Positions 1,397-58,741 of a stretch of 64,000 nucleotides of DNA are shown in pieces. The translations under genes and the position numbers were made by a program. Positions within the stretch are counted from its first letter, which is position 1; every line of letters begins with the position of its first letter. Origin of the DNA: Hanleya hanleyi (taxonomy: Eukaryota; Mollusca; Polyplacophora; Lepidopleurida; Hanleyidae); NCBI GenBank assembly GCA_036873755.1, contig JAVTVY010036947.1, forward strand, positions 62,001-126,000, read 5' to 3'. The notes beneath the pieces are model-generated. The model worked only from the letters and a program-made list of their open reading frames with translations. It did no database searches and was not told where the DNA came from.

Positions 1397-1527
1397 TACA
1401 AATGAATAAACATTATCATTATTTCACTGTCAGTTGGTTTAACAAAAGTACAGCAGCCTCAGATACAGAGAAACACAACGAGACTAAGGCATCCATCCAA
1501 CAGTACTACGCCTTCATGTTGAATGGG
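1397..1527 (+). CDS. Gene 1 exon a: start of the reprolysin (M12B) domain
   Basis: Acceptor TGCAG at 1392-1396 and donor GTGAGT at 1528. The exon enters in phase 1 and leaves in phase 0. It encodes a segment with two aromatic clusters, TVSWFNKSTAAS and IQQYYAFMLNG, matching the start of M12B catalytic domains, where a helix with YY precedes the strand supplied by the next exon. No initiator Met or signal peptide is encoded here, so upstream exons must exist. Confidence 0.7.
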
Positions 1528-10500: not shown

Positions 10501-13500
10501 GTGTAATTCAATAGACAGTTATATCATGGCCTCTACGAGTGGATTGTCATCGGAAGCTACTGCGCAGAATCCCTGGTACTTCTCTTCCTGTTCCATTGAC
10601 TACTTCCGGTCTAAGATGAGCGAGCTAAACTCGTACGTATACCAGAAATTTGTACAAATTGATCGATTCACCGGTCGGTAAACTGTTCATCAAGCTTATA
10701 TGACAAATATATCAATCATTTCACCCCGACTTCCCCGAGAAAGAAGGTAAACAAGCGTTTGAAATGGGGCTTTCATCTTTTTTTGTTTTGCTTTTTCGTA
10801 CGCATTTCACCATGGATATATTAATATGTTTAAAATGTGACACCTTTATTTAGTCAAAATAATAGTTGAGAATAATATCACCGCAGATATGGTTACTTTG
10901 AAAATATTATATTCTTGTTGGCTCAAAGTGTCGTAGATATATAAAAAAAATCCAGACTAAAATGTACATGAGCAAGTCAAAGACAGACGAAAGTCCAAAC
11001 GTCTGTGTTACGTCACTTTTGAATCTAATCATTATCGATATCAATCATGAGTATTTTGTTTGTACGAAACACAACCGTTTGTGCAAAATTAAATAAATAT
11101 GTTTTGGACCTTACATGACGTAACTACTTCTTTGTGAAAGAGAAAATCTGACTCACATGAATTTTTCATGTAAATATTTAATTTTTCGACATTTCAGAGG
11201 AGGTAATAACTGCTTATTGACAGAAAGTTCAAGCTATGACCCGACAGCATTGAAAACTTACCTAAACCAATCGCAACCTGGCCAGTACTACAATATAGAC
11301 ACGCAATGTTCCTATGCAATGGGGAACGGATCGTACTTCTGCAGGGTAGGTCGGGAAATAGACAGCAGTACATAATGCGTTAAACAATCTTGAGAATAAT
11401 TATAATTGTTCTCTATATTTTACCTTTTCTGTATAGTTCATCGGGATAGATACTCAGAAGCAACAAACTGTTATTTGAAGTTGTGGAGATTAAGCTTATT
11501 AGAGATAAATAATAAATAGAGATTATTGTATACCCATTTCCATATCGGCTCTGGAATACTGATCAGCAATACGGATTTGATATTTTGGAACATCATGATG
11601 TCTTGCCGGCATCATTGAAAATTGTTGACCGCTTCTCTCTTGCAGGAAACAAGCCTATGTTTATGTATACTTTTGTCTTTTTGAATTTGGTGCTGGTGCT
11701 GTTATGTGGAAATGGAATGGGTCTTCGGATTATGGACGCGGATGTTCTCTAATGGACGACGGCTGGATTGTGAATGACGGGCTAGACGCTTGTAATCAGC
11801 TCGATACCGCCATATCAGCCAGAGTGCCGAAGGCCTGAGGAGGTCGAGAGCTGATGCAAGGGGCAATATGAAAGAGGGTATATCATAATCTATGTATCAC
11901 ATATTTATAGATGAATGGTAGCATTGTAATTGATCGCTTACCGGGTGACTACGCATACCTAAATAAATTAACACGTAGCAAGATCCAGGTGAAAAGCACA
12001 AGGGTGCGCCCTGCCAGACTGCAGAGATAATAGGAGTTCCTCGAAGGGAAACCACTCCTGGGGCTGATAACCGATATCAGGCCCGCGCGTGAGGGCAGAA
12101 ATCCGTATCGTGATATGGAAGGGTGTCCTTCCACAGTACCAACGGGGCTAAATGTCCAGTATCACAAACAAATATGTTTACCTCACGTGCTCCGATGTAT
12201 ATGCGATGTAAGGCGAACACAGCTGTTAAGATCCAAACGCGGACTGGAACATTAGCGTGGACAACAGCTGTTCAGCAGTTAGTGCGGTTTTTCTGTATCC
12301 AATGTATGTCTTTCTGGATACAGGGATTCTACAGGGATGCGGCAACCTATTCTGGTATATGCGGTGGGATGTACTGTAATTTACCAGGAACACACCTGTG
12401 TCAAAAGGTAGAGCCTGGCAGAGGAACGACATGTGGAGACAACCGGGTGAGAGCAAATCTTTAGGCAAGCCTTATTACGGGTCGTAGTGCTATTTAAAAG
12501 GTTATTTCCGTTTATTTTTCAAGATAATGGACCTTTGGGGATGAAACTTGGCATCAGACCCTTGCTACTCAGAACCGAACTCTTGACATATTTCGGTATT
12601 TATAGACAGGTCCCAGCCAAGAAAAAACTAACATTTTTTCCGGTCAAAGTTTTCTCAGTGGTTCCGTCATCCTTGACTTATGCCCTTTCAATCTAGCTGT
12701 GGGGCCACCCTGGATTTGGCCTCAAATCCAATATGGCGGCCAAAATCCAAAACGGCCGCCAATACCCATAGAAGCTCACAATTTCCTGCTCGAAAATCAA
12801 TTTTCTAACCACAAACTAGGTGTTTTTCTAGTCCTACGTAGGCTTGGAACGATTTTTGATTCATCTGAAAATTCAATATGGCCGCCAAAATCCAAAATGG
12901 CGGCCATTGTCCATCGAATCACACATATTCCTGCCCTAATATGTAGAGATGGACCATCCATGGTCCGAATGCGTCCTGTGGGGTGTCATCTTGTAGCTCT
13001 CGGGTGTAGACCCCGATTTGAGGGATATCCATGTCATCTGTGACGTCATCGGTAACGTCATCAGTAGGAGTAGTAGCGAAAGCGGGCATTTTTGGGGTGC
13101 GTGGAGGTGTGTTTGAGGTAAAGATGGACCATCCTTGGTCCGAATGTGTCGTGTGGGGTGTCATGTTGTAGCTCTCGGGGTGTAGACCACGACTTGAGGT
13201 TTTTCCATCTCATCTGTGACGTCATCAGTTTGAGTTGTAGCGAAAGCGGGCGTTTCGGCGGTGCAAGGGAGTGCGTTTGGAGTAGATGACGGCCTTTTTT
13301 CCACCCAGCTACCTGATAGAGTTACCTGTGAGTGTGAGTTTATGCGCGCGCGTGTGTGTGAGTGTGTGAGTGAGTGAGTGAGGCGTGCACAACGCCCTTG
13401 AGGCGTCCCAAACGTCCGTTAACGCATGGACGCGCTAACGACGGTGACTGAGTGAGTGGGATCCGACTGGACTAATGTATCGCCTGCTTTCATCATTTTG

Positions 13501-16500
13501 CGCATGCGCAGTCTGGCTGTAGTATAGAAAGCAGGCATTTTGGGTATTCGTGGAGGTCTGCTGAGTGATTGACGGACCATCCCTGATCAAATGGACCGTG
13601 TGGGGTATCAGTGTGAAGCGCCCGTGTGTCAGACTGGCTTGTTTTCATTGGAAGTCTCGCCAATCTGCGCATTCGCAGTTGGGGTGTAGTAAGTAAAGTG
13701 AACATTTTGTGAGGTGTGTGGGGGTCTGTTGACTGGTGAGGGACCATTCGTGGTCCGAATGCCTCGTGTGAGGTGTCAAAGTAAAGCTTTCGTGATGTAG
13801 ACCATGACTTGAGGGGTGTCCCTGTCATCTGTGACGTCATTTTTGACGTCATAAGTAGGAGTAATAGCCAAAATGGAAATTTTTAGGGTATGAAGTAAGG
13901 TGTTTGGGGTAGAGAGGGACCATGTTTAGTTCAAATGGCCCATTTGGGGTGTCCTAGTGAAGCTTTCGTGGGGTAGAATCAGACTGGCATGTTTTTTATT
14001 GGAAGTTGTGCCAATCTGAACATGCCCAGTTGTTGTATAGCAAGTAAAGTGGTTATTCTGGAGGTGAGTGGGGATGTGTTTGAGCGATTGAGGGACCAAT
14101 CGTGATCCGAATGCGTCGTGTGAGGTGTCAAAGCAAAGCATTCATGGTGTGGAGGAGTGGAGGAGATAATAAAATGATTGACCTGTAATCGTTGATGTTG
14201 TTGTTGCTCTATTTTTGGACAAACCAATCAGAATAGTACTTGTCACGGACTACACCCGTAGAGCTATGTATAGGCGCGCAGGGCTTCAGGGCTAATTCGG
14301 CAGGGCGTTGAAGCATTGAGCTTGTCGTTGGTGGGTGTTGCTACAAGTTGACACCTCACACGACGCATTCGGACCACGGATGGTCCATTTCTACCCCAAA
14401 CACCTTGCTTCACACCCCAAAAATATCCACTTCGTGGCTACAACTCCTACAGAGGACGTCAGCAATGACGTCACAGATGACCCGCATATCCCTCAAGTCG
14501 TGGTCCACACCATGAAAGCTTAGCTTTGACACCTCACACGACGCATTCGGACCAAGAATGGTCTCTCGATCGCTCAAACATATCCCCACGTACCTCCAGA
14601 ATGATCACTTTACTTACTACCCCACAACTGGGCATGATCAGATTGACGCGACTTTCACTAAAAACATGCCAGTCTGACTCTACCCCACGAACGCTCCACA
14701 AGGACACCTCAACCGGGCCATTTGGAGCAAACATGGTTTCTCTCTATCCCAAATGCCACACTTCATACCCTCAAAATTCCCACTTTGGCTACTACTGCTA
14801 CTGATGACGTCAAGAATGACGTCACAGATGACAGGAACACCCCTCAAGTCATGGTCTACACCACGAAAGCTTCACTTTGACACCTCACATGAGGCATTCG
14901 TACCAAAAATGGTCCCTCGTCACTCAACAGACCCCCACGTACCTCCCAAAATGACCACTTTACTTACTACACCCCTACTGGGCATGCGCAGATTGGCGCG
15001 ACTTCCAATGGAAATAAGCCAGGCTGACCCACGAGAGCTTCACACTGATACCCCACACGGTCCATTTGACCAGGGATGGTCCCTCAATCACTCAACAAAC
15101 CTCCACGAACCCCCAGAATGCCTGCTTTCTATACTACGGCCAGACTGCATGTGCAAAATGATGAAAACGGACGATACATTAGTCCAGTCGGATCCCACTC
15201 ACTCACACAATCACTCACTCACTCAGCCACCGTCGTTAGTGCGTCCATGCGTTAAGACGGTCGTTGGGGACGCCTCAAGGGTGTTGTGCACGCCTCACTC
15301 ACTCACTCACTCACTCACTCACACCCACTTCCACACACGCGCGCGCATACACTCAGGTAACTGGAGGGAAAAAAGGTAATCTACTCCAAACGCACTCCAT
15401 TGCACCTCCGAAATGCCCGCTTTCGCTACTACTCGTACTGATGACGTCACCGATGACGTCACAAATGACATGGAAAAACCTCAAGTCGTGGTCTAGACCC
15501 CGAGAGCTACAACATGACACTCCACACGACACATTCGGACCAAGGATGGTCCATCTATACCCCAAACACACCCCAAAACTTCCCGCTTTCGCTACTACTC
15601 GTACTGACTCACTCACACACTCACACCCACCCACACACACGCGCGCGCATACACTCACAGGTAACTGGACGGAAAAAGGTCATCTACTCCAAACGCACTC
15701 CATTGCACCTCCGAAATGCCCGCTTTCGCTACTACTCGTACTGATGACGTCACCGATGACGTCACAGATGACATGGATATGCCTCAAATCGGGGTCTACA
15801 CTCCGAGAGCTACAAGATGACACCCCACAGGACGCATTCGGACCAAGGATGGTCCATCTCTACATATTAGGGAAGGAAAATGTGTGATCCAAAATTAACT
15901 AATTATTCATACCCGACGTAGGACTAGAACATTACCTAGTTTGTGGTTGAAAAACTGATTTTCGAGCAGGAAATTGTGAGTCTCTATGGGTATTGGCGGC
16001 CATTTTGGATTTTGGCCGCCATATTGGATTTGAGGTCAAATCCAGGGTGGCCCCTCAGCTAAATTGAAAGGGCATAAGTCAAGGATGACGGAACCGCTGA
16101 GAAAACTTTGACCGGAAAAAATGTTAGTTTTTTTCTTGGCTGGGACCTGTCTATTATCGGTGATTCGATCTGACATATCAACATAATTAAAATGTTGGCA
16201 GTACCAGTGAAGGTGCTATTTCGGAAACAAATTGCCATATTTTTTGTTTAAATTACGGCTACAATTGATCAGATTAGCCATGAACTAATTGGTTGTTTCA
16301 TTGGTATATTTTTATATAGTTAGAATGATTAGATGATATTCCAGGTACCCCATCTGGCGCTAAAGTGCATTGACATGCATGTGAGCAGGGGCACCCTTAT
16401 TGTAAATTTCGCGTGCACTTAAGTCACGTAGTGCCAATTGCCAAAACGGATACATGAAATTGAAGTCGAGTATCTTTTTTCATAAAAGCAAGGTACTTAC

Positions 16501-19500
16501 TTACGAAGTATTTATGAATTCACCGAGAAACTGAGGTAAAAACAATTTTCGTCAGTAAAAAGGGCTGAAATTTGGAAGAACGATGCGTTTTAACTTCTTT
16601 TAAACATGTATAGAATTGTCCATATCCATTGAATCTGCTCGTGTAACGGCACGAAGTGTAAAAAAAAACGTCCAACAAAGCACTGTGACCCGTAAGGATA
16701 TTCAGCGAATACATAAATGGAAGGGCATGGACTCCGTATTGCCTTCGTGTTGTGTTCAATTTCCCAGATGTATACCACATTTGAGGTTGAAGTCGCTAGG
16801 GTAGATACTGGATCTTTCAGTCTAAATAGAGTATATATTCTGAGCATGGACTGTTGAAATAATTTAACCAAAGTTAAACATTTAGTGGTTATACTCTTTG
16901 TGGGCCAACGTGAGTGTCTCGACTTCCGTAGATTTCCGATGGGAACTTCCGAATGTAGACGAACTCGTTCAGATAGAATTGTCCATACTTCATCTGAGGA
17001 ACACATCCACTAACGAAATCTCGATTAACAATGAATCTAGACACGGGATTTATATGCAGGTGTATACAGGCATGGACAATATATCCTCACATGAAGTACC
17101 GACCGAGACGATATACACTGCATGGTCTCCTTCATAACTATAGGAAACTCATATCTATATTAGGAAATATGAGAATATTCAATGCTCCGCTGATTTGGTT
17201 GGAGGGTCAATGGTGTTTAAATAGACGTGTTTGTAATAAGTTCTTGAGAGAGAGAGAGCGCTGTTTTAAAATATAATTACATTTGTATTCATCAAATGTT
17301 CCTTATTTTGTTTCAGTGGTGCATAGAAGGTGCTTGTGTGGAGGATATTGACGCTCCGTCAGCTTTAGGTACCGTCATCATAACCATATTCAACTTTTCT
17401 AAGGAATTCTTACCTGCATTCTGAATGGTTGGGTGGTATTCCATTCTTCGTCACTATCCAATGAAAATACCAGATTTATTTGGGGAAATTTGTATAGGCC
17501 AACCAAATATTTCAAAACTTGATATCTACTCATTCCACTGGCCTTTCTATAAAAATCAATTAACTAAAACGATCGTCAAAGAAGTACATGTATGTGCCTT
17601 TTTCCGTATTCTCTTTCTTCGTGGAATATTTCAGAATTTATGTGGCAGGAAAGCGTTTTAAACAGCGCTGAATTTCTTCATTTTGTATTTTTATTATTGG
17701 ATGGATTTGCACTCTATATGCTAGCCTCCTGTCCACTGGGAGATCAGCCGGGCGTGGTAGCTGGTAACCTAGCGTGCGCAGAAATGCTTCAACAGTCATA
17801 CCGGTGCTATTTTGAGGCAACTCGACAGAGATGTTGTGAATCGTGCGAATCAATAAGAACGAGCGTGACGGGTAAGTGAGTAAATCAGATCCAACATTGA
17901 ATAGGCAGCTGTCGTCCACAAGGAATTTCGTGCCCCGAAAACACGTGAAGCATTGAGTAACAGAAATAGTCTCTGAATAATAAAATAGAAGAGTCACTCG
18001 GCTGTTTATTTGTCCGACCAGTTTGATCGGACAGTGGGTGCTCACTCAATCTCGGGGTCGTCGTCTAGCAGACTTTGGGAGATTAAAGGGGATGCCCAAT
18101 TATTTGCTGTTCCTCTAATTTGATGACACCCACCGGGTGGGCATGATATCACTCTATATATAGTCTTTGCTATTTTCTATTGTTCACCTAAAAATCTCAA
18201 AATGCATAATCTCTCAGTTTTCTCCGAACTAGGTTGGGACCATCGCATACATATTTAGTCATTCTGTTTTTCATATAGCCTGTGCCTATCTTCCATCATG
18301 GGATCATGGGTACTAAGTCAAATTACAACACATATAAGGGAAGTGGGAAGAGATGCCGACATACTGACAGAGCCACATGACTTCACAGTATAGCTGGTTA
18401 ACCTATTCTAAAGCACACACCAAGAATCTAACGATTCGTGATATGTGTTGTATCTCAGGTACGCTTTTATTGTACCTGTTCATGTGGCAACTTGGATGAC
18501 ATGACCGCACGGCCCCCAGCACCGGCATAAGCGGTATTAGACACAAATCTAGAGAGCTGTGATGGAAATGCTCTGACAACTCGTATATTGGTAATTGGTG
18601 AGCTGTTTAGCTGTGAAAGTTTCGTCTCATGTCGCATGTTTTTGTCTTTGTAGACTGTGAGTATGGCGATAAGCAGCCCTTCTGTTCAACACTTGAAACA
18701 CTCGATTGTTATTTGAATGATGCAGACTGCTGTAAGAAATGTGGAGATATCAGAAACACCTCGATTCCAGGTTAAGGTCCTTCAATTGTTTCTGGTTTTC
18801 AGCGTAGCTTTCTAAAAAAAACATTTTTAAAATATTCATTTTCTTACCGATTCTGGCCAAATGAATGACATAACTTCATCACGTTTATTTATTGCTGATT
18901 CAGAGCTGTGTACTCATATATATCCTCTATGTATATCGTTGATGTACATCGACAACGCATAGCCCATGTGCTATTTTTGTTAAGAAATTTATGTTCTATG
19001 TTTATCCTGCTTGCCAACATTGACATTTATTAGGCGATTGAAATGGGTTTACGTTTAGACAATATATGAACAGCAAATTTGAATAAATAAACAAATTGCT
19101 TATGGATGACAACTTCTAGTTTATTCAGGACGACGTTTCGATACAGGTACTAATATCGTTCTCAAGTCAATTAAAAGCAAATTTGAAATAGATCTAATTT
19201 AAATATATTTGAAATTATACAGAAATATAGGAGGTTAAGCAGGCGTGCTATATAAAGACTATAGACTAAATAACAATTAGAGCCAGAGTGAATAAGAAAG
19301 AGGAAAGCTGCTGCGCTCACGACGACGGGCTCTCTCGCCATACAGTCTTCCATTCTTGGGATTGGTAGTGACATGTTTAAAAAAAAAAAACAATCCATCG
19401 CGCAGTCTTATTTAGTCCGGGGATACATGGGGCTAGATAAAAATGCACATTACCGGTTGGAGTGATTTAGTCAACCTCTGCTGTTCAGCCTGTGCCTATC

Positions 19501-20190
19501 TGCGTCACACCAGCATTGGATCATGGATAAGTCAAAGGTTCGTTTCATGTCAAATGTTTTTGTCTTTGTAGGCTGCGAGTATGGCGATAAGCAGCCCTTC
19601 TGTTCAACACTTGAATCGTTCGAGTGTTATTTGAATGATGCCGAATGCTGTAAGAAATGCGGAGATATCAGAAACACCTCGATTCCAGGTTAAGACCCTG
19701 CAATTTTTCTAGCTTTCAGCCTAGCTTGCTAAAAAAACTTTTTTAAAAGGTTCATTTCCTTACCGATTCGGGCCAAATGAATTATATGACTTCGTCGTGT
19801 TTATTTATTGCGTTGTATTCACATATCTCCTCCATGGTGATCTTTGATGTACACGGACAACGCATAGCCCCTTTGCTATATTTTGTTAAGAAATTGATGT
19901 TCTATGTTTATCCTGCTTGCCAACGATTTCCACGAATTCTGATTCAATACATAACCTACAGATCATGAGTTCTTCTAATACGACGGAAATCAAATCAAAA
20001 TAGACCGCATCAGTGGCAGCATTTATGGTAGATTACGCTTCGGTAAATCTATATTAACTGATGCCGCTGGGGGAGGACGTGGTCTCTATAGTCCCTATTT
20101 TGTCATACGTTGCTACACATTTAATTCAGTTTTGAAGGCGCGGGCCGACATATGGTTTTTATATATGTGTATACGTGTAGTGTCGTTATT

Positions 20191-20229
<39 letters not shown>

Positions 20230-22543
20230 AAGGCAGTTTATACTGTGATCATTATTTGTTTGTTGTTATTGTAGACTGCGAGTACGGCGACAAGGCGGCC
20301 TTCTGTTCAACGCTTGAAGCATATCAGTGCTACGCAAACGACGAACCCTGCTGTAAGACATGTGCAGATATCAAAAACTCCATGAAGCCCGGTGAGAGTT
20401 GTCCTCTGTGTATCCTTCTTGCTATGAGGCGCCGTTTGTCACTTTCTGAATTAATCTATTTATTTATAAATATCGGTTATTTAGCAGTCGGATATATAAA
20501 TCCGTAAAAATGAGCGTAAAATAAACACTGACTTTAGTCAGTTTTAAATCTTATATCAGCGGCTTCGCACACATATTTAGTCCTTCTTGCCTATCTGCGT
20601 CACACCGTCATGGGATCATGGGTAAGTCAAAGGATCGTTTCATGTCACATGTTTTTGTCTTTGTAGACTGCGATAAGCAGCCCTTCTGTTTAACGCTTGA
20701 ATCATTCGATTGTTATTCATTTTCTTACCGATTCGAGCCGAATGAATGATATGACTCCATCACGTTTATTTATTGCTATTTCAGAGCTGTGTACTCATAT
20801 ATCTCCTCCATGGTGATCTTTGATGTACACGGACAACGCATAGCCCCTGTGCTATTTTTTGTTAAGAAATTTATGCTCTATGTTTATCCTGCTTGTCAAC
20901 GATTTCCACGAATTCTGATTCAACATGTAACCTACAGAAAATACTAAAGAGTACAACTTGTTTAATGTGATCGTAAACCCCCAAGCAAAGTTTCCATCAA
21001 ATGAAAGAGCATTGCAAACAGTGTGAAAAAATATTTATTGTAATTTTTTACGATTTTATTACACAGAGTAAACTGCAAATAAAGCATGGTATTCTATGGT
21101 GGTCTGTTGCAATCATATTTAGGTCCAGTGACGTCACACTGCCTTAATATATATATTTCAAACTGTGTATGCACTTTCCAATGCTTGATTCAAGCTTAAG
21201 GTGTGTATAATTTGAGTTTCAACAGACTCACTGTTCCAGTATGCATGTTTCACCAAAATCGGAGAAATTGAATGCAAGATTCAAATTGACCTGACACTTA
21301 TGAGTTACCATCTCCGTGAAACATGCACACTGGAACAGTGAGTCTGTGTTGAAACTCAAAGTATACACACCTTGAACTTGAATCAAGCATTGGAAAGGTC
21401 ATACACAGTTTGAAATATATGTATTAAGGCAGTGTGACGTCATTGGACCTAAATATGATTGCAACAGACCACCATAGAATATCATGCTTTATTGCAATTA
21501 ATTCTGTGTAATAAAATCGTAAAAAATACAATAAATATTTTTCCACACAGTTTGCAAGTCTTTCATTTGAGGGTTTTTGATCACTTTAAATTACGTAATT
21601 GTAGTCATAGTACGACGCATCAGGACTGGGTATTAAATCGCATTGTCTCCCTATTCGAAAATGTTGTGACATTGATTTTAAATTTACGTATGCAGGGTGT
21701 GAATATGGAGACAGGTGGAGTGGTTGTGATGCTCAGAGTTGTCTATCGTATACCGAAAGCGTTCGGTATACTTACTGCTGTGAATCCTGCCCACGCCCAA
21801 CTACGACTGGAGGACCTACAACAATTACGACAATGCGGCTCACAACTACCAAAATACAGTCTGCGTCTACGGAAGCACCTACAACTACCACATCTGAACT
21901 CGCAACGACCACAATAAAACCTACAACAAGAACAATAGTGCCTACAACTACAGCAGTACAACCTGTAACCACCACAGAAGCACCTACAACCATCAGAGCT
22001 GAACCCACAACAACCACAATAAAGCCTGAAATCACCACTTTAGCGCCCACAACTACAACAGTACAGCCTGTAAGCACCACAGTAGCACCGACAACCACCA
22101 GAGCTGAACCCAGAACAACCACAATAAAACCTGAAACCACCACTTTAGCGCCAACAAGTACAGCAGAACTGCCCGTAACCACCACAGTAGCACCTACAAC
22201 CACCAGAGCTGAACCCACAACAACCACAATAAAACCTGAAACCACCACTTTAGCGCCAACTATTACAAAAAAACTGCCCGTAACCACCACAGTACCACCT
22301 ACAACCACCAGAGCTGAACCCACAACAACCACAATAAAACCTGAAATCACCACTTCAGCGCCCACAACTACAACTGTACAGCCTATAACCACCACAGTAG
22401 CACCTACAACCACCAGAGCTGAGCCCACAACGACCCCAATACAATCTACAACCAGCGCAGTGACATCTACAACTACAGCAGCGCGGCCTGTAACCACCAC
22501 CATAATAATAATAATAATAATCCCTTTATTTTGTAAGGGTTGA
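1397..22543 (+). CDS. Gene 1: M12B (ADAM/ADAMTS-like) metalloprotease with ShK-like modules and mucin-like tail, 5' partial
   Basis: Spliced gene for a probably secreted zinc endopeptidase. Exons at 1397-1527, 4324-4401, 6425-6585, 6837-6874, 10184-10289, 10465-10632, 11198-11345, 12324-12446, 17317-17368, 17725-17871, 18654-18770, 19572-19688, 20275-20391 and 21696-22543 are bounded by AG and GT, and every junction keeps phase (about 783 codons in total). Order: start of the reprolysin domain, HExxHxxGxxHD zinc site plus Met-turn, ADAMTS-type cysteine-rich segment, five six-cysteine ShK-like modules, Thr/Pro-rich tail. Signal peptide and propeptide exons would lie left of the window or were not recognised. 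No thrombospondin type 1 motif was seen. Family knowledge: such enzymes cut extracellular matrix or surface proteins. The layout resembles molluscan genes annotated as ADAM family mig-17-like, but orthology is not shown. A LINE fixes the present 3' end. Confidence 0.85.
1644..1913. mobile_element. Compact double-hairpin MITE-like element
   Basis: Ends are ATGTCGCCC and GGGCGACAT. Inside, 1798-1842 and 1866-1911 form a long imperfect stem (GTCGCCCTTaCGGGGTAA against TTACCCCGaAAGGGCGAC, continuing through CGCGATGAG). A second pair near 1656-1676 and 1770-1790 shares TGTAAGAACGCA in inverted orientation. It lies in gene 1's first visible intron. Superfamily unknown. Confidence 0.55.
2040..2245. 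promoter_or_regulatory. Cluster of AGGTCA nuclear-receptor half-sites
   Basis: At least eight AGGTCA/TGACCT hexamers occur in about 200 bp. They include a perfect palindrome with a 3-base spacer at 2083-2097 (AGGTCACATTGACCT), a near-palindrome at 2112-2125, and a direct repeat at 2046-2064. The surrounding phrase TTTGCCAATTTCGAGGTTT occurs twice, so the tract is itself a diverged repeat. Activity is untested. Confidence 0.4.
2250..4323. other. Intron sequence of gene 1, no feature recognised
   Basis: AT-rich, non-coding. Short open frames here (2784-3236, 3340-3597) have no domain, no supporting splice phase and no repeat partner in the window, and are treated as chance. Confidence 0.5.
4324..4401 (+). 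CDS. Gene 1 exon b: M12B domain, early beta strands
   Basis: Acceptor TTTACAG ends at 4323 and donor GTGAGT begins at 4402. The 78 nt give 26 codons in phase 0, starting MDLRYKN and ending GLFIVE. The VNG/MDLRY join to exon a is typical of the reprolysin fold (strand I to strand II). Confidence 0.7.
4646..4931 (+). repeat. Penelope-like 3' terminal region, first part (interrupted)
   Basis: Matches the 3' untranslated region of the Penelope-like copy at 35425-35790: landmarks GAACCCATGTA, CTGATCAGCGATACGG, TTGATATTTTTGGAACAT, TGACCGCTTC and TTTGGTGCTAATGCT. The remainder resumes at 6275-6357 (GGATTATGGACGCG ... CTAGACG), so the 4932-6274 segment is an insertion. Confidence 0.65.
4932..6274. 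mobile_element. 1.34-kb insertion inside a Penelope 3' end
   Basis: Near the ends are 11-bp inverted repeats ACCCCTCAGCC (4937-4947) and GGCTGAGGGGT (6237-6247). Inside the left end are a short hairpin (CAGCCC-ATA-GGGCTG), a (CGTC)n run at about 4981-5017 and a tandem duplication of about 185 bp (about 5014-5395, each copy starting CAACATGTTCTTGTCCGC). The rest, 5400-6236, is non-coding with no recognised gene. A non-autonomous DNA element is likely. Confidence 0.5.
6275..6357 (+). repeat. Penelope-like 3' terminal region, second part
   Basis: Carries GGATTATGGACGCG, a TTCTTTAATGG variant, GACGGCTGAATATTGAATG and CTAGACG, the extreme 3' block of the Penelope family. It completes the fragment that starts at 4646. 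Confidence 0.65.
6425..6585 (+). CDS. Gene 1 exon c: M12B domain middle
   Basis: Acceptor TTTACCCAG ends at 6424 and donor GTAAGA starts at 6586. Phase 0 in, phase 2 out. The product runs from DPSVSTWTDG through ALSLFTTWVQGRSDLPENDH to MLFTS. The F-x2-W and NDHxMLFT elements are hallmarks of ADAM/ADAMTS catalytic domains (the strand before the active-site helix). Confidence 0.8.
6837..6874 (+). CDS. Gene 1 micro-exon d (38 nt)
   Basis: Acceptor TCCTAG ends at 6836 and donor GTAGGT starts at 6875. It encodes YDLKRSGSAANL and links MLFTS (exon c) to GLANLGTVCSS (exon e) with both split codons restored. It was found only by phase matching and domain continuity. Confidence 0.7.
6938..8070. repeat. 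40-bp minisatellite, about 27 copies
   Basis: Unit TAAGGTACGGTCTGCACAAA continuing TAAGATAGTGAACAGTGATG, with few length variants (39-40 bp). Because 40 is not a multiple of 3 and the minus strand of the unit lacks stops, all three minus frames stay open (up to 277 codons), giving repetitive Leu/Tyr/Cys-rich translations. These are not genes. It lies in the intron after micro-exon d. Confidence 0.9.
8180..8273 (+). repeat. AB-family repeat copy 2, left part
   Basis: Contains ACTCAAAATGACCCCAATAT as in 825-845. It is interrupted at 8260-8273 by an L1-like element and continues at 10006-10110. Confidence 0.65.
8274..10005 (+). mobile_element. 5'-truncated L1/Tx1-like LINE with 14-bp target duplication
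   Basis: Only the C-terminal part of ORF2 remains: 8274-9655 is one frame broken by a single TGA at 8945-8947. It covers the region after the reverse transcriptase palm (LTLLGKITVIKSL, FIWNGG) and a zinc knuckle C-x2-C-x8-H-x4-C (CSYCGRQRETLEHLFIEC). A 3' UTR and an A-run at about 9991-10007 follow. AAGTCGCTGAGTCT occurs at 8260-8273 and 10006-10019 as the target-site duplication, so the element inserted by target-primed reverse transcription into an AB repeat within a gene 1 intron. Confidence 0.9.
10020..10110 (+). repeat. AB-family repeat copy 2, right part
   Basis: Resumes with CATCTCTCATTTTTTTGTCG and TTCCGGAGATAG, the same order as 865-900 in the intact copy. Confidence 0.65.
10184..10289 (+). 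CDS. Gene 1 exon e: active-site helix, first half of the zinc motif
   Basis: Acceptor CAACCTTAG ends at 10183 and donor GTGTGT starts at 10290. It encodes GTVCSSTSTAISENY followed by AAHELGH. His and Glu of HExxH lie in the last codons, and the intron falls inside the Ser codon after HELGH. It lies about 180 bp right of the 3' end of an inserted L1-like element. Confidence 0.9.
10465..10632 (+). CDS. Gene 1 exon f: third zinc His, Met-turn, end of catalytic domain
   Basis: Acceptor GCTTACAG ends at 10464 and donor GTACGT starts at 10633. With exon e it completes HELGHSLGAYHD, so all three zinc ligands, the catalytic Glu and the trailing Asp are present. The Met-turn is in YIMAST. The end, FSSCSIDYFRSKMSEL, matches the final helix of the reprolysin domain. 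The enzyme is therefore predicted to be catalytically competent. Confidence 0.92.
10633..11197 (+). other. Intron of gene 1, nothing recognised
   Basis: Non-coding AT-rich sequence between exons f and g; no repeat partner noticed. Confidence 0.5.
11198..11345 (+). CDS. Gene 1 exon g: post-catalytic segment
   Basis: Acceptor CATTTCAG ends at 11197 and donor GTAGGT starts at 11346. The product contains NNCLLTES, then PGQYYNIDTQCSYAMG and YFCR. PGxxYxxxxQC is the conserved start of the disintegrin-like/cysteine-rich region of ADAMTS proteins. Confidence 0.85.
11545..11815 (+). repeat. Penelope-like solo 3' end
   Basis: Well-preserved 3' block: CTGATCAGCAATACGG, a hairpin-capable ATGATGTCTTGCCGGCATCAT region, TGACCGCTTCTCTCTTGCAG, GGATTATGGACGCGGATGTT, and GGACGACGGCTGG to CTAGACGCTTGTAAT. 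No coding part, so it is a strongly 5'-truncated insertion. Bases 11816-12323 show nothing further. Confidence 0.75.
12324..12446 (+). CDS. Gene 1 exon h: ADAMTS-type cysteine-rich region
   Basis: Acceptor GGATACAG ends at 12323 and donor GTGAGA starts at 12447; phase 0 at both ends. It encodes ICGGMYCNLPGTHLC and RGTTCGDNR. The GTxCG element is diagnostic of the ADAMTS cysteine-rich module. A second AG eleven bases inside the exon would break the frame. Confidence 0.85.
12603..16153. mobile_element. 3.55-kb foldback element with tandem-repeat arms, TTA target duplication
   Basis: The ends TAGACAGGTCCCAGCC and GGCTGGGACCTGTCTA are flanked by TTA (12600-12602 and 16154-16156). Outer arms (12603-12870 and 15905-16153) carry a NGGCGGCCAAAATCC motif in inverted order. 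Inner arms (about 12900-14160 and 14340-15890) are inverted arrays of roughly 200-bp units containing ATGGACCATCC, CGAATGCGTC, and CRE motifs TGACGTCA, plus (GTGA)n/(ACTC)n runs at 13340-13385 and 15292-15330. No transposase was found. The 3-bp TTA duplication fits PIF/Harbinger-type targets, but the family is unproven. It lies in the intron between exons h and i. Confidence 0.8.
16157..17316 (+). other. Intron sequence, no feature recognised
   Basis: Between the foldback element and exon i. Several short frames on both strands (16520-17137) have no recognisable domain or repeat partner in the window. Confidence 0.5.
17317..17368 (+). CDS. Gene 1 exon i: WCIEGxC end of cysteine-rich region
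   Basis: Acceptor TGTTTCAG ends at 17316 and donor GTACCG starts at 17369. The 52 nt encode WCIEGACVEDIDAPSAL. WCxxGxC directly follows GTxCG in ADAMTS proteins, which confirms the join to exon h across a 4.9-kb intron holding the foldback element. Confidence 0.85.
17725..17871 (+). CDS. Gene 1 exon j: first ShK-like six-cysteine module
   Basis: Acceptor ATGCTAG ends at 17724 and donor GTAAGT starts at 17872. It is a phase 1-1 exon with six cysteines ending in a CCxxC motif (RCCESCES), the C-terminal signature of ShK-like domains. It is longer and more divergent than the three modules that follow. Confidence 0.75.
18325..18620 (-). repeat. 300-bp dispersed repeat with Penelope 3' UTR motif, minus copy
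   Basis: Reverse complement of 37895-38200. It contains the inverted TAATACCGCTTATGCCGGTG block, which also occurs just after the Penelope-like stop codon at 35392. It sits directly upstream of exon k. Confidence 0.7.
18654..18770 (+). CDS. Gene 1 exon k: ShK-like module 2
   Basis: A 117-nt symmetric phase 1-1 exon (acceptor CTTTGTAG, donor GTTAAG). Cysteines are spaced C-x8-C-x7-C-x6-CC-x2-C, beginning CEYGDKQPFC and ending CCKKCGDIRN. It is nearly identical to module 3 at 19572. ShK-like modules are common in worm and mollusc metalloproteases and are thought to mediate protein binding; no toxin role is implied. Confidence 0.85.
19572..19688 (+). CDS. Gene 1 exon l: ShK-like module 3
   Basis: A 117-nt phase 1-1 exon with the same acceptor (CTTTGTAG) and donor (GTTAAG) contexts as module 2. 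It differs at only a few codons (LESFEC for LETLDC, DAECC for DADCC). The flanking intron DNA is also duplicated, showing segmental tandem duplication rather than convergence. Confidence 0.85.
20193..20226. repeat. (TA)n microsatellite
   Basis: About 16 uninterrupted TA units shortly before the acceptor of exon m. Confidence 0.95.
20275..20391 (+). CDS. Gene 1 exon m: ShK-like module 4
   Basis: A 117-nt phase 1-1 exon; acceptor TATTGTAG follows a (TA)n tract and the donor is GTGAGA. It encodes CEYGDKAAFC through CCKTCADIKNS with the same cysteine spacing as modules 2 and 3 but more substitutions. Its introns do not match theirs, so it is an older copy. Confidence 0.85.
20667..20720 (+). pseudogene. 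Broken ShK-like exon (decayed duplicate of modules 2/3)
   Basis: After an intact-looking acceptor CTTTGTAG the sequence matches modules 2 and 3 but lacks eight bases after the first codon (CEYGDK becomes CDK). It then runs from the third cysteine codon straight into duplicated intron sequence, so the CCKKC half and the donor are gone. Skipping it joins exon m to exon n in phase. Confidence 0.8.
20966..21585. mobile_element. 620-bp palindromic MITE with TTAA flanks
   Basis: Two arms of about 290 bp are inverted around roughly 21270 (GGTCTGTTGCAATCATATTT on the left returns as its complement on the right). Ends TGTGATCGTAAACCC and GGGTTTTTGATCACT are flanked by TTAA at 20962-20965 and 21586-21589. 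Each arm holds a CRE-like TGACGTCA. It lies in the intron before exon n. TTAA targets are typical of piggyBac-type transposases; no coding capacity. Confidence 0.8.
21696..22543 (+). CDS. Gene 1 exon n: ShK-like module 5 plus Thr/Pro-rich mucin-like repeats, ending in LINE sequence
   Basis: Acceptor ACGTATGCAG ends at 21695; phase 1 entry. A last cysteine module (CEYGDRWSGC ... YCCESCPRP) passes directly into Thr-rich repeats of about 35 residues (105 nt) carrying TTTRAEPTTTTIKPE, expected to be heavily O-glycosylated. The frame is open to 22500, where a minus-strand LINE begins. The frame then reads (ATT)n as a run of Ile, followed by PLFCKG and TGA at 22541-22543. The original 3' part of the array lies beyond the LINE at 25966-27366. 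Confidence 0.8.
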
Positions 22544-25500
22544 ACACAATTATCGCCAGGGGAGCTAGTTTACATTGTAGCGTTTTAAACGCATGTACAA
22601 CATTAGTAAGTATGATTAAATGAAATGAAATATAATAAATATGTAATATAAAACTAGTACCATATATTGGTATGTAACACAATATAATAATAAACAATAT
22701 AGCAATAAACTAATTTGGTTATATAAGAAAAAATTAATCAAAGCTAGCGATTTGAATTTAAAAAGTTTGTTATCTGCTTTTAAAAGAGTTAAGACTATTA
22801 GTAGAATTCCCAGATTCTGGAAGATCATAAAACGGAAGCAGAATATACAAAACTTCGTTTAAAGGACTCAGCTCTTGCCTTTCGTACATAAAGGTCGTTG
22901 TTTTCTGCTGATTTTGTATAGCGTTGATTGACGTCCGTTACTCTAATAAAATTATTCAAAGACTCTGGTGCCAAGCCATTTAAAATCTTAAAAGATAAAA
23001 CAGCTCTCTTAAAAACAATTCGATCGTATACTGGCGTACAATTTAGAGTTCTAAAAAGCTGAAAAGATTGAGATAAAATATCCGTCATGCTTAAAATTAC
23101 TCTAGCAGCTCTTTTTTGCAGTCTACAAAGTTTGTTGAGATTTTCTTTATTATTGGTGTTTCCCAAACAGTACAACAGTACAGCACAAATATTCGAAATG
23201 GAGAAAAACTCTGACATTGTAAACCTTGAGTGCAGTACTTCGTGACATACAATAGTGGAGATGTTTTGAAATACCTATTTTTAGTGCAATCTTCGTACAC
23301 AGGTAAATAACATGTTGTTTCCATGATAACGTCTGATCAATGATAATGCCTAATAATTTATTTCAGTTACAGTTTCTATTGCAATGTTATTAGCATAAAT
23401 ACAAAGATTACAAGCTTTACAAAGCTTTTGTGTGCTTCCAATTAATATACTTTTTTGTCTTAAGTACGTTGAGGGTGAGCTTATTTGCTAATAACCAGTT
23501 ACTAACATGTATTGTATCAGTGCTTAATTTTTCTTCTATTTCTTTGACATTTATACCAGAACATGATTGCGAACTGTCGTCATCATACATATCGATTTCT
23601 GTACATGTTAACCATCCAAGAAAGTCTTTGGTATATATTATAAGTAGCAATGGTCCCAAGTTTGTGCCTTGAGGTACATGTACACCTATCTCAACATTTT
23701 TAGAGTTAGACATGGCTGCTTTCCAACAAACTAACTGCTTTCGACCTATCAAGTAAGAACTAATCCAAGAGAGTTTAGTGTCCTGTATTCCATAGAATGA
23801 CAATTTATGTAGCAAAACATCGTACTTGACAGTGTCGAATGCTTTGCATAGATCTAAGAAGATAGTCAGTAAGTAAACCCTTATCTATGTTTTCCAACCA
23901 CCGCTCAATCATACTTGTTAAGGCAGTTTCACATGAGTGTTGTGGTCGGAACCCTGACTGTTTACTGGACAAACAACATGTGTTCTAAATAATTATAAAA
24001 ATGTGTATGAATATGTCTTTCAACTATTTTACTCACAGATGGTAAGACAGACACAGTTTGTAGTTTGAGACATTGAAAGAATCTCTAGATTTAAAAAGGG
24101 AAGTAACTCTTGCCAATTTCCACTCCTCTATAAAAGTATTACTCGACAATGATAGGTTAAAACGGAGTGAAAATGGCAGATACACCGCACCTTAAAAGCT
24201 GGATGGATATTCCATCCAAACCAGTGGTTTTAGTTGAGAACATTTTGAGAATTTCTTCTTCAGCAGAATCTTCCAAGATGGGAGGGATACTAAAAGATAC
24301 ATCATCTGGCACTCACCTTGACATAAATGGTAAAGAAGTGTCAAACTTCTCGTCTATCTTTTGTCCAACGGAAGAGAAATAGCTGTTAAACATGTGAGCA
24401 ATTTCAGCAGTATATGTTATTACTTAGTCTTCCTGTTTGTAAAGTAAGCAGTGTACCCACGGAAAGATTTTTGTAGAAACTGCTTGAGAGGTTCATATTC
24501 CATGTAAGAATCACGAGACAATGCATACAATAGCCTAGTCTGAGGACAACAAAGACCCAGACAATAGCTTCCTACATGAAGTATCGACCGCTTGAGAATA
24601 GTCCACCTTGTTTTTCGGTTATTTCGGTTTTGTTCTACTGCTTCGTCGAAATGGTATCTTTGAGTTTTTCGAATTAGCCCCTGTACTCGATGTCGTTGAG
24701 CTCTGTAGTTACTCCAATCGTCTACGTCATCAGCTCTCACGGCTCTTTTTCAGAAGATGCTCGCGTGTATGCATTTTCGTAAGGATGACGTCATTTGCCC
24801 AGTGCTCAGTTTGGGCTCGAATCCTTCTCTCTCTGAATGGTGCATGGTCATCGACAACGTCCAGGAAAAGGCTCTTGAAGATGCCGCATGCGTCATTTGG
24901 ATCCGTAAAAGCCTCGATAATACTCCCATGCACTAGATTTAAGTCATTAGTAAAACTGTCCTTTTTGAAATTTTCCATATTTCGATATTTAGCCTGGGTC
25001 GGAATTTGCCGACAGTATATACCAAGTGGAGATCACTAAGACCAAGGGGGATAACCCCGGATTGCACGCAATTCCAGGTATCCCAGTAATAAAATCTGAT
25101 AAAGTTTTTGAACGTGCTGTAACTCTCGTTGCTTCCTTTATATTTACCTGGGTGTATCCGGAAATGTCATTATTTGCATAAGCCTGCCAGAAAGAGTTTC
25201 CTGATTCAGCAAATCAACATTGAGGTCACCCAGAATTATTGATAGATTGTTAAGATTTGAGATATTGTCAACAACGTCCTCACAATCCTGATACCATGGG
25301 CCGAGAGAGTCTGGTGGTCTATACACAACACAGTACAGCATAGGTGTGGAATTGGCTTGTTTTATTTTCCCTACCATAGTCTCTATATGCTTGGACTCAA
25401 GTTCAGGTCTCTCTTTAGCATTAATGTATGTTTTTTAATAAGACAATATACCACATCCATGCCAAGTTCTGTCATTCCTGATGGAGTCGCTATATCCTTC

Positions 25501-25965
25501 AAAGCTGATAATTCGCTCGTCTGCGGTCTCGTCGATATGGCTCTCCGTCACATAGAATATGTCCAGCCTGGGAAGTATAATCCTCAGTTGATCCATTGTG
25601 TTTGAAATACATTGAGTGTTTATATGAGCCGGTTTGAGTCATTTAGCAAACGAGTATTTCGATACTTCGTAACTCTCATTATTCGACGGGCCCGTTGGTG
25701 TTAAACTGTCGAAACAGCCATCACAGATCCATTCAATTTTGTTTGTGATGTTAGCATCACAGTGTGAGTCACTTGCTTCAAAACAGGCACACTCAGTCTG
25801 CAGATCTGTTCTGCAGCCAATACATTGTATATACGGCGATTCGGGTGAAATTTGCTAGTTACGATTACATCATAACATGCCGATCGCATCTGGCTCAGGG
25901 TTGACTTCGACATCTCCGGATAATAGCATAAGCCAGGTCAGGCATAGCCGCGCGAAGCTCAATTT
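22501..25965 (-). mobile_element. CR1/L2-like LINE, minus strand, inside the mucin exon
   Basis: Reading the minus strand: an N-terminal Cys-rich region (about 25960-25700), an APE endonuclease piece with VVYRPPDS and LGDLNVDLL (about 25377-25144), a linker, reverse transcriptase with VPQGTNLGPLLLIIY and a degenerate catalytic MYDDDSS (23815-23417), and a C-terminal segment LCRLQKRAARVIL (23217-22825). It ends in an (ATT)n tail at 22501-22521. Multiple frameshifts and stops make it non-autonomous. Target duplication is at most about 5 bp (ACCAT) and uncertain. Confidence 0.85.
22634..22639 (+). promoter_or_regulatory. Candidate poly(A) signal inside the antisense LINE
   Basis: AATAAA lies 91 bases after the new stop codon of gene 1, within LINE DNA read antisense. 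It could provide the present transcript end. AT-rich sequence makes chance occurrences common, so this is only a candidate. Confidence 0.3.
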
Positions 25966-27366
25966 TGACCATGTACAATGTTGTCGTATCTACAACGGCC
26001 ACACATGTACCCACAACGACCACAATACAATCTACAACCAGCACAGTAGCACCGACAACTACAGCAGTACAGCCTGTAGCCACCACAGTAGCACCTACAA
26101 CCATCACAGCCGAATTCACAACGCCCACAATAAGATCTACAACCACCACAGTAGCACCTACAACTACAGTGCATCATGTAACCACCACAGTAGTACCTAC
26201 ACCCACAATAGCTGAATCAACAACGACCACAATAAAACCTGTAAACACCGCAGTAGCACCTACAACTAAGGCAATACAAACGGTAACAACAACGGTAGCA
26301 CCTACAACTCTAGCAGATGAACCCACAACAAATACAATAAAATCTAAAACCACCGCAGCTGACGACCACAATCAGACCTACAACCACCACAGTAGCACAT
26401 ACTACCACCACAGCTGAACGCGCAACTATCACGATAAAATCTGCAACCACAACAGTAACCCTACAACTCCAGTTGTGCAGCCTGTAACCACCACAGCAGC
26501 ACATACAACTGCAAAGGTACAACGTGTGATTAGCACAGATGCACCCACGATCAGCACAACAGCACCCACAACAGTAGCACTTATTACCCCCACTGTATAT
26601 AGTGACCACCACGACAGACCCGAAAACCACCACAGTAGAACGTCCAACTACATCAACATCCACTATAGAATTTGAACGTACAACGACCATGACCGCTAAA
26701 CCTACAAAACCAGGAAATCAGAACATACAATAACCTCTACGTCAGAACCCACAACAGCCACAATAAAACAGCCTATATCCAAAACAGAAAAACCTAGAGA
26801 ACAAGCGACCGTTACAATACAATCTAGAAGGACAACAGTAGAAAGTACACTCACTACGACAGTAGCACATACAATCAACACAGTAACACGTACATCCACC
26901 GCAGTGGCACGTAAAACTGCCACGACAGTAGCACATACATTCATCACAGTAGAACCCACAACCGTCGTTACAGTGGAGCACACAAACATCACAGGAGCAC
27001 CAACAACCGCCGCGACAATAGAACACGCAACCACCCCAGTAACAGAACGTACAACAATCACACCACAACGTATAACAACAAAAACAGAGCGATCAACCTT
27101 TACCGGATAATCTATAATGACCACATTAGAGCCTACAACAACTATTGCAGAACCAGCAATCACCACTACAGCAAAACTCTCAGCCACACCAAAACGCACC
27201 ACTGAAGCGACAGGGCCGGAGGAAGCTACAACGGAAGAAATTACCACCAAAACACTTACTACCACTTCGGAGCCAACTACCTGGACAACAGTAGAAATAG
27301 CTACGTCCACCTCTGTACCCACTATCAGTGATCCGGGTGATTCCAATCCAGCATCTTTTTCAGAAA
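25966..27366 (+). pseudogene. Orphaned, decaying 3' half of the mucin-like array of gene 1
   Basis: The sequence encodes the same Thr/Pro-rich repeats as 21830-22500 (TIQSTTSTVAPTTTAVQPV and relatives) but in at least five frame segments. Shifts are visible near 26355, 26460 and 26600, and stop codons fall near 26730 and at 27109-27111. The last segment ends SNPASFSE before a good GTGAGT donor at 27367. This is the pattern of a coding repeat no longer under selection after the LINE insertion. Long open frames on the opposite strand are by-products of the ACC/ACA codon repeats. Confidence 0.7.
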
Positions 27367-27499
27367 GTGAGTCAAACATATTTATTCCTTCATTACTCCG
27401 ATAGTAACGGTGAATATCTGTTTCCAGTATTTCTATGAAATAGATCGTACAGACAAGTGCATTTGGCTAGAATTGTTTCCTTTGTTTTTACGAATGTTA

Positions 27500-44940: not shown

Positions 44941-45525
44941 TGACAACTACTATAAGCACCTAATATTGATGACTTAGTGTGATGACTTACTTTTGAACAC
45001 AGTTTTGTGGAAATATTTTACTTATTGTTATCCAGTGTGTGGCACACGGTCAGCCTAGCGAGTGATTAGCATTCTGTTGATTACCATAGTAACCGTTTGC
45101 ATATGAGATCGTATTAGTGCGTCTGTTATAAGTAAAACATTGGTAAACAAGATATAAGCAATACATTATATGCCACGACAAAATCTAGAACTCTCTCAAT
45201 CGATTATTACCTAATATGATTACAATCAATAGCAATAACCGTAATAATCTTGTGTGTGTGCACAAATCCTTATCTTATTTTACTCTTCTCGGTAACTGCT
45301 GGAGCCCCATCGTCACGCTGGAGAACCAGTTTATGTTAAGGCTCTCCATAATTAACGCTTTTGAAATTATTTTAGTGATTTATGTTGTAAATATAATTAA
45401 TATCTTTCTCATCAATAACCTTTTCCCTTCCATGGTATGCACATTAAGCCATGCTGAAAACCTATACACGCTCCAGCAAATTGTCCGATTGAATCTTTTC
45501 CTGTATATATCTCTAGTATTCGACA
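44941..45525 (+). other. LINE spacer before ORF2
   Basis: AT-rich. A 105-codon frame (45216-45533) has no recognisable domain. Confidence 0.4.
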
Positions 45526-52599: not shown

Positions 52600-52607
52600 T
52601 GTTTAAA

Positions 52608-52841
52608 GGTACGGCACATCACGTTGGGCACACCGGTTCTCGTCAGATCACCGAAGTTAAGCAGCGTTGAGCTCGGTCAATACTTGGATGGGTGACCGGG
52701 TGCTGTACTGGCTGGGCTGATCAGTGTCCAGAATAATAGGAACTGTGGACACTCTCGTGTTCTGGCACATGTAGGCACCGTCGTGATATGACTGAAACAA
52801 TGTTGAAAACGACGTTAAATCCTACTCACTCACTCACTCAC
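52608..52841 (+). mobile_element. 5S rRNA-derived SINE with 8-bp target duplication
   Basis: The first about 95 bp follow animal 5S rRNA (ATCACGTTG, GATCACCGAAGTTAAGCAGCG as box A, CTTGGATGGGTGACCGG as box C), then depart before the 5S 3' strand. The body ends GATATGACTGAAACAATGTTG, ACGACGTTAAATCCTACTC and (ACTC)n. TGTTTAAA is present at 52600-52607 and 52842-52849. The internal pol III promoter looks intact. It is not a functional 5S gene. Confidence 0.9.
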
Positions 52842-58332: not shown

Positions 58333-58741
58333 TGAATTTATACCTACAAGGATGAAATTCCTGTATGAAAGCAACTCTCCCGTTTGCATCACCTTGTGAT
58401 AACGCAACGCCAAAAAAACCTTGCCGTGCTTTCTGTTTGTGACGAATATATAACACAGTGATCCAATACAGAATCAGTTACACAATTGATACAAGTTTTG
58501 TTCCTATGGTCACGCCTAAAAATATAGTAGCAAAGCTGAGATTGGGAAATAATCCAACCTAACTTTCCTGGACGACTCACACATGAACGGTTGATCGGTG
58601 GGGTGGAAGAGGGAGGGGTCGATTTTCAAAATAAATTGTTCTAATCCTTCATCATTGTTTTGAATTTCGAACATTTTACATTTCAGTACTTGATACCATC
58701 ACCGTCCAATATCTGAGGCCTGCAGTGAAGAGATAGCAAAG

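What the first reader, a model, noticed from the sequence alone, without database searches (positions are those of the whole stretch)
21696..27366. A LINE has cut a mucin-tailed protease: new stop and possible new poly(A) site upstream, decay downstream
The Thr/Pro array of gene 1 is in one open frame up to 22500. It then reads the (ATT)n tail of an antisense CR1/L2-like LINE as poly-Ile, PLFCKG and TGA, with AATAAA 91 bases on. Past the LINE the same array continues but has several frameshifts and stops. This asymmetry is what truncation followed by relaxed selection predicts. The protein would gain a short hydrophobic C-terminus.
Basis: partly seen in the sequence, partly recalled or inferred. 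Interest (0 to 1): 0.75.

Follow-up and report, generated by a model that had tools for sequence, protein, structure and literature searches.

The report
Old LINE truncates a mollusc protease
In a mollusc, probably a chiton, an old jumping gene sits inside the sugar-stalk exon of a membrane-type protease gene; what lies before it is still intact and what lies after it is decaying, so the gene seems to have lived on as a shortened protein, an ordinary kind of event but with a useful built-in clock.

Summary
Exon 21696-27366 of an M12B (ADAMTS-like) protease gene is split by an antisense APE-type LINE (about 22502-25975). The frame left of it is open, then reads seven Ile, PLFCKG and TGA (22541-22543). 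The array right of it has 4 frameshifts and 1 stop.

A better test uses the LINE as a clock. It differs 7.3-7.9% from seven copies that differ 0.1-2.1% from each other, and carries 17 frame breaks in 2964 bp. At that rate the 2271 bp of coding sequence before it should hold 13; it holds none. The right array decays at about the LINE's rate. Seven arrays without this LINE hold 4 breaks in 23,285 bp, against assembly error as the whole cause.

A paralogue and a chiton homologue continue this exon into a transmembrane exon; none was found here. Best reading: a once membrane-tethered protease long kept as a LINE-truncated form. No transcripts could be examined.

The parts
1434..20391 (+). 13 exons of gene 1 in the window before the split exon: 1434-1527, 4324-4401, 6425-6585, 6837-6874, 10184-10289, 10465-10632, 11198-11345, 12324-12446, 17317-17368, 17725-17871, 18654-18770, 19572-19688, 20275-20391; protease with HELGHSLGAYHD, ADAMTS_CR_2, then CEYGDK-type Cys-rich repeats
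   Evidence: GT/AG model without a frame break; Pfam Reprolysin and ADAMTS_CR_2; homologues P0047-P0050
21696..27366 (+). original stalk exon, now split by the LINE; phase 1 at both ends; last Cys-rich repeat plus Thr/Pro array
21787..22501 (+). left part of the Thr/Pro array, open frame; TRF: 5.4 units of 105 bp at 21874-22441
22502..22543 (+). new C-terminus read from the LINE's 3' end: IIIIIIIPLFCKG, stop TGA 22541-22543
22634..22639 (+). AATAAA after the new stop (others at 22689 and 22704); chance level
22502..25975 (-). antisense APE-type LINE, broken (17 breaks in 2964 bp); right boundary approximate
24490..24586 (.). about 97 bp of this LINE copy that are missing from the 8 other copies with matches on both sides, which overlap by about 11 bp there: small nested insertion (inference)
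25986..27366 (+). right part of the Thr/Pro array, 4 frameshifts and 1 stop
27367..27372 (+). GTGAGT, original 5' splice site of the stalk exon, at the place homologous to that of paralogue C44903
20667..20760 (+). decayed extra copy of a Cys-rich exon, not used in the model

Best explanation
An APE-type LINE inserted long ago, antisense, into the Thr/Pro stalk exon of a gene for a stalked, membrane-anchored M12B protease. Translation now ends about 40 bases into the LINE (shown by sequence). The gene 5' of the LINE has stayed under selection as a shortened gene, while the stalk 3' of the LINE decayed with the LINE and the transmembrane exon can no longer be found (the state of the DNA is shown; selection and the former anchor are inferred). 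The product is most likely a catalytically competent protease with a short stalk and no membrane anchor, made from transcripts that end in or just after the LINE (inferred; no transcript seen).
For: 1) Whole upstream coding sequence in the window: 2271 bp, 14 exon pieces, no break; motif HExxHxxGxxHD kept. 2) Internal clock: the LINE has 17 breaks in 2964 bp against P0151 (19 in 2788 and 18 in 2998 against P0152 and P0155). At that rate 13.0 breaks are expected upstream, 0 seen, Poisson P 2e-6, conditional P 6e-5; without the array 8.9 expected, 0 seen, P 1e-4; left array alone 4.1 expected, 0 seen, P 0.017; the right array has 5 where 8.0 are expected, P 0.19, so LINE-like. 3) Age: 7.3-7.9% from each of 7 copies that are 0.1-2.1% from each other; at 7% neutral change 6.1 nonsense changes are expected upstream, 0 seen, P 0.002. 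4) Assembly error: 7 arrays without this LINE, 4 breaks in 23,285 bp; 5 in 1388 bp has P 5e-6. 5) Ancestral anchor: Liolophura P0048 and P0012 and own-genome C44903 run stalk, TM, cytoplasmic tail; C44903's stalk exon ends PDPASFLE|gtgagt, here SNPASFSE|gtgagt, same phase. 6) No TM exon in 66.6 kb 3' of the exon: best model match there E 1.2; a model made without C44903 still finds C44903's TM exon at E 1.2e-6.
Against: No RNA evidence. The left array itself shows no purifying signature, and left versus right array alone gives P 0.125. C44903, the paralogue that still has its TM exon, carries 2 frameshifts in its own array, so such breaks need not mean decay, or some are assembly errors; its protease exons are not on its contig, so it is not known to be a working gene. 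Some LINE breaks may be alignment artefacts, the homologue being 33% identical by BLASTP; 2 of the 17 lie in the small nested insertion; whether the LINE's source was unbroken was not tested. Part of the 7% may be a subfamily difference rather than age. A weak TM-like match with a stop lies at L012:5140-5274, about 52 kb 3' (E 0.07-0.09). Other members of the family lack a membrane segment (P0047, P0050), so an anchor in this very gene is inferred from the exon end. The AATAAA is at chance level.
Confidence: 0.6

Rival explanations
1. The anchor was lost first: a rearrangement severed the transmembrane and cytoplasmic exons, the stalk became dispensable, and the LINE landed later in DNA that no longer mattered.
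For: A cytoplasmic-tail exon with two in-frame stops lies on the same contig, C32302:3688-3948, on the opposite strand, about 80 kb from the split exon; no protease, stalk or TM exon of its own was found in 2-42 kb of the contig. Tails on C34308, C44552 and C44903 have no stop before the end of their match.
Against: If the stalk had decayed before the LINE came, it should have more breaks per kb than the LINE; it has 3.6 against 5.7, though the difference is not significant (P 0.19). The tail segment belongs to a set of three duplicates 85-88% identical, and none of the 40 gene-body matches outside gene 1 is that close, so its link to gene 1 is doubtful.
Confidence: 0.15
2. The whole gene is a dying pseudogene and its upstream part has simply not been hit yet.
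For: Transposon-rich neighbourhood; an extra Cys-rich exon copy at 20667 is decayed; no transcript evidence.
Against: 0 breaks in 2271 bp where the LINE's rate predicts 13.0 and nonsense alone predicts 6.1; all splice sites of the model are GT/AG; two duplicated Cys-rich exons are 92.3% identical against 82.1% for the intron 3' of them, P 0.011 (the 5' side, 58% over 93 columns, was not used since it looks only partly homologous).
Confidence: 0.1
3. The LINE is removed from the mRNA: it is spliced out as a new intron, or the whole symmetric (phase 1-1) stalk exon is skipped to restore a membrane-anchored form.
For: The exon is phase 1 at both ends, so skipping keeps the frame; antisense LINE 1 elements in mouse carry working splice sites (PMC2176070, abstract and passages).
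Against: With a site model made from 19 donors and 20 acceptors of this family (scored on themselves, so flattering), the best donor in the left array scores 3.3 (true ones 3.8-12.0) and the best acceptor in the right array 2.9 (true ones 7.2-18.9); the right array is broken and no TM exon was found to splice to. The LINE does hold acceptor-like sites (25380, score 13.1).
Confidence: 0.1
4. Assembly error: the frameshifts right of the LINE, or the LINE junction itself, are artefacts of a long-read assembly.
For: If the genome is Hanleya hanleyi, it was built from Nanopore plus Illumina reads (PMC9366239, abstract and passages), and 2 of the 7 control arrays carry 2 frameshifts each.
Against: The 7 control arrays, several visibly more repetitive, have 4 breaks in 23,285 bp and no stop; 5 in 1388 bp has P 5e-6. 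By eye, one break is a plain nonsense change and one an 8 bp deletion against the neighbouring units, not homopolymer slips. The LINE copy differs by about 7% from others over the roughly 1 kb compared, so it is a real, old copy.
Confidence: 0.05

Closest known systems
Mouse GBP-5 transcripts with a C-terminus read from an exonised antisense LINE 1 (PMC2176070, passages)
   Same: An antisense LINE supplies a new C-terminus and stop codon to a host gene
   Different: There an intronic LINE 1 is spliced into alternative transcripts, shown by cDNA; here the LINE sits inside a coding exon, is read directly, and the 3' part of the gene is decaying
P0048 'mucin-2-like' of Liolophura sinensis, and own-genome paralogue C44903
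   Same: P0048: same protease, Cys-rich repeats and Thr/Pro stalk. C44903: same Cys-rich and stalk exons, same exon end and phase
   Different: Both go on into a transmembrane segment and a cytoplasmic tail; no LINE seen. C44903's protease exons are not on its contig
P0050 of Liolophura sinensis
   Same: Protease with a Thr-rich tail and no recognisable membrane segment in its predicted protein
   Different: Not the closest homologue; no LINE-derived end seen
Intronic polyadenylation that makes shortened proteins (PMC5928244, start of abstract in search listing)
   Same: Shortened protein from an early transcript end
   Different: Isoforms in human cells, not an insertion in the genome

Membership tests
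M12B (reprolysin/ADAM-type) metalloprotease | Zinc motif HExxHxxGxxHD and Reprolysin profile match | tested here: met
   HELGHSLGAYHD across exons 10184-10289/10465-10632; PF01421 E 5.6e-8
ADAMTS proper | ADAMTS_CR_2 cysteine-rich domain | tested here: met
   PF17771 E 3e-14
ADAMTS proper | Thrombospondin type 1 repeats (defining feature recalled) | tested here: not met
   No such Pfam match in the 407 residues given; so called ADAMTS-like only
ShK-domain proteins | ShK profile match in the Cys-rich repeats | tested here: not met
   No such match at E 0.001; 'ShK-like' in my notes is by eye
Membrane-anchored stalked protease subgroup | Stalk exon followed by transmembrane and cytoplasmic exons | tested here: not met
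   Exon end homologous to that of C44903, but no TM exon in 66.6 kb; a former member by inference
APE-type LINE | Reverse transcriptase | tested here: met
   RVT_1 E 3.1e-12 on 23417-23884 minus
APE-type LINE | AP-like endonuclease upstream of the reverse transcriptase | tested here: met
   Alignment to P0151, listed with PF14529, PF03372 and PF00078, over 25791-22828
APE-type LINE | Target site duplication | tested here: inconclusive
   None seen by eye at the two edges; right edge approximate
CR1/L2 clade | Placement in an RT tree | not tested
   No tree made
Gene truncated by an exonised LINE | Stop codon inside the element in the host frame | tested here: met
   TGA 22541-22543
Gene truncated by an exonised LINE | Transcripts that end in the element | not testable with these tools
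   No RNA data

The most novel reading that the evidence does not exclude
A single LINE insertion turned a membrane-tethered stalked protease into a soluble one, and selection has kept the shortened gene, with its microsatellite-coded poly-Ile end, for as long as it took the LINE to diverge by up to about 7% and the anchor exons to be lost: a retained switch of localisation made by a transposon.
Probability: 0.35. Interest if true: 0.55.

Novelty: new member of a known kind. Interest (0 to 1): 0.42.

Why it matters
Transposon insertions in coding exons are expected to be harmful and lost (general knowledge). Here the insert carries its own clock, so one can ask how long the shortened gene has been kept, which half decays, and whether losing a membrane anchor was tolerated or useful. 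A paralogue that still has the anchor exons, in the same genome, is a ready comparison.

Tried and rejected
Purifying selection in the left array from unit-to-unit changes: not seen. AATAAA as evidence: chance level. Splicing the LINE out through array sites: no good sites (searches used some exon edges off by one and are superseded for the site scores). TM exon 3' of the gene: no convincing match. A full 5' gene model with start codon: my chain search found none. Other copies of the LINE in 240,077 bp of fetched loci: only itself and one 51 bp match; copies were found by whole-genome search. A LINE-free allele: none in the list, where the best match after the query itself is its own right array at 77%. 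The orphan tail exon on the same contig was followed and left as ambiguous. u5 and v0 as uniquely closest units across the LINE: not so, v0 is about as close to u0. Literature: searches; judged by titles and starts of abstracts, no listed paper describes this insertion; 'Polyplacophora' with 'ADAMTS' gave no paper, and one search gave none.

Species: inferred only. The closest proteins are from the chiton Liolophura, and the assembly's size and contig count (2.481 Gb, 52,793) are near those of Hanleya hanleyi (2.52 Gb, 57,495 scaffolds; PMC9366239, abstract and passages).

Rows dropped and bias: the 23,285 bp of controls are 7 arrays; two more (L028, L029) were read later and look open but are not counted. 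Control segments other than L019's were picked as best-scoring stretches, which favours open ones. The frame model was trained on the left array and on the first part of L019's. Of 93 LINE matches (40 of 1827 candidates scored) 7 copies were compared, about 1 kb each. The right-array segment scored (25980-27367) includes one base beyond the exon.

Full report
What is there. Gene 1 is an M12B metalloprotease gene on the + strand. My model uses 13 exons from 1434 to 20391 plus the stalk exon starting at 21696, all with GT/AG edges and no frame break. Four further open coding stretches that match homologues lie upstream of the window; a full 5' model with a start codon was not reached. Pfam finds Reprolysin and ADAMTS_CR_2 but no thrombospondin or ShK match. 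The Cys-rich exons (CEYGDK type) meet in phase 1. The stalk exon runs 21696-27366, phase 1 at both ends, and ends AAA|GTGAGT.

The insert. From 22502 to about 25975 lies a minus-strand LINE. Its ATT microsatellite is at the left, so the host frame reads ATA six times and ATC (seven Ile), then PLFCKG and TGA at 22541-22543. Because the microsatellite unit is 3 bases, whole-unit changes in its length leave the frame and the stop as they are (inference). The LINE aligns with the uninterrupted protein P0151 over 25791-22828 with 12 frameshifts and 5 stops. Near its right end one frame reads GDVEVNPEPD, close to the 2A motif known from LINE proteins (motif recalled).

Array halves. A frame-following model gives 0 breaks in 715 bp to the left, and 4 frameshifts plus 1 stop in 1388 bp to the right, at all three penalties tried. 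Seven Thr/Pro arrays of the same assembly without this LINE have 4 frameshifts and no stop in 23,285 bp: 2 each in L019 and L021, none in the other 5. So breaks on the right exceed the assembly's own level at P 5e-6. The contrast of the two halves alone is weak: P 0.125. The left units u1-u4 are 10% apart, with 18 synonymous and 36 non-synonymous single-change codons, the neutral share of synonymous changes being 0.30; for the left array only 0.86 nonsense changes are expected at 7% divergence.

The LINE as clock. Seven other copies from the same genome differ by 0.1-2.1% from each other and by 7.3-7.9% from this one, so this copy is old relative to those. At its break rate, 13.0 breaks are expected in the 2271 bp of upstream coding sequence; none is seen (Poisson P 2e-6; conditional P 6e-5). 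Without the array part, 8.9 expected, none seen (P 1e-4); left array alone, 4.1 expected, none seen (P 0.017). In the right array, 8.0 expected, 5 seen (P 0.19). With 7% neutral change, 6.1 nonsense changes are expected upstream, none seen (P 0.002). Two duplicated Cys-rich exons are 92.3% identical and the intron 3' of them 82.1% (P 0.011). The simplest reading is that the gene before the LINE stayed useful and the part after it did not.

What was lost. In Liolophura sinensis, P0048 and P0012 run stalk, transmembrane helix, cytoplasmic tail. In the genome of the window, C44903 has the same Cys-rich and stalk exons, then a TM exon (L019:7904-8025) and a tail exon (L019:9163-9435); its protease exons are not on that contig, and its array has 2 frameshifts. 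Its stalk exon ends PDPASFLE|gtgagt; here SNPASFSE|gtgagt. Of 150 homologues, 55 have a TM-like stretch after the protease, 48 a Ser/Thr/Pro-rich stretch, 28 both (a hydropathy cut, and some stretches sit at the very C-terminus). In the 66.6 kb from the exon end to within 60 bases of the contig end the best TM model match has E 1.2; a model made without C44903 finds C44903's exon at E 1.2e-6, so sensitivity was adequate at that distance. A weak match with a stop at L012:5140-5274 (E 0.07-0.09) may be chance or a remnant.

A loose end. A cytoplasmic-tail exon with two in-frame stops lies on the same contig at C32302:3688-3948, minus strand. It is one of three duplicates 85-88% identical, and no gene-body match outside gene 1 is that close. 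It could be the severed tail of gene 1 after an inversion, or an unrelated duplicate. The order 'anchor lost first' remains possible; the right array has fewer breaks per kb than the LINE, not more, but not significantly so.

Fate of the transcript. If the transcript ends in the LINE, the stop is in the last exon and the mRNA should escape decay; if it runs on to 27366 and splices, the stop lies far upstream of a junction and decay is likely (general knowledge). AATAAA at 22634, with a GT-rich stretch soon after (by eye), is usable but at chance level. Splicing the LINE out within the array is not supported by site scores. No RNA could be examined.

Known and new. LINE-made stops and C-termini are known, for example mouse GBP-5 (PMC2176070, passages). 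This case adds an insert inside a coding exon with a readable clock. I rate it a new member of a known kind.

On re-reading the calls I mended the LINE's left edge (22502), named the nested insertion's span and the 8 copies behind it, added the frameshifts of C44903 and its missing protease exons as points against, noted that the rate difference between array and LINE is not significant, and told the early repeats of busy calls.

Noticed in passing
C32302:3688-3948 (minus), L017:1688-1947: Orphan cytoplasmic-tail exon of this protease family with two in-frame stops, on the contig of the window but opposite strand; two more such segments (C34308, C44552), 85-88% identical.
   Followed up: partly
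window 20667-20760: Third, decayed copy of a Cys-rich exon within a set of duplicated exon-intron segments at 18.6, 19.5 and 20.6 kb.
   Followed up: partly
window 24490-24586: About 97 bp in this LINE copy that 8 other copies lack, with about 11 bp overlap in their coordinates: a small nested insertion.
   Followed up: no
window 45517-46164: Another LINE-like ORF reads GDIESNPGPD, like a 2A peptide (motif recalled); the split-exon LINE has the altered form GDVEVNPEPD.
   Followed up: no
window 28943-29470: ORF with a weak tyrosine-recombinase (Phage_integrase) match, E 0.011; a DIRS-like element is possible just 3' of the stalk exon.
   Followed up: partly
window 6967-8076: 40 bp tandem repeat, 27.8 copies, in an intron of gene 1.
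   Followed up: no
window 58694-61354: Open frame of 886 codons with CUB domains, probably the next gene on the + strand.
   Followed up: no
window 52607-52711: 5S rRNA match above Rfam's gathering score, the only Rfam match in the window at that threshold.
   Followed up: no
L027 (C6254:121001-131000): A Thr-rich array of 9,558 bp in one open frame without a break.
   Followed up: no
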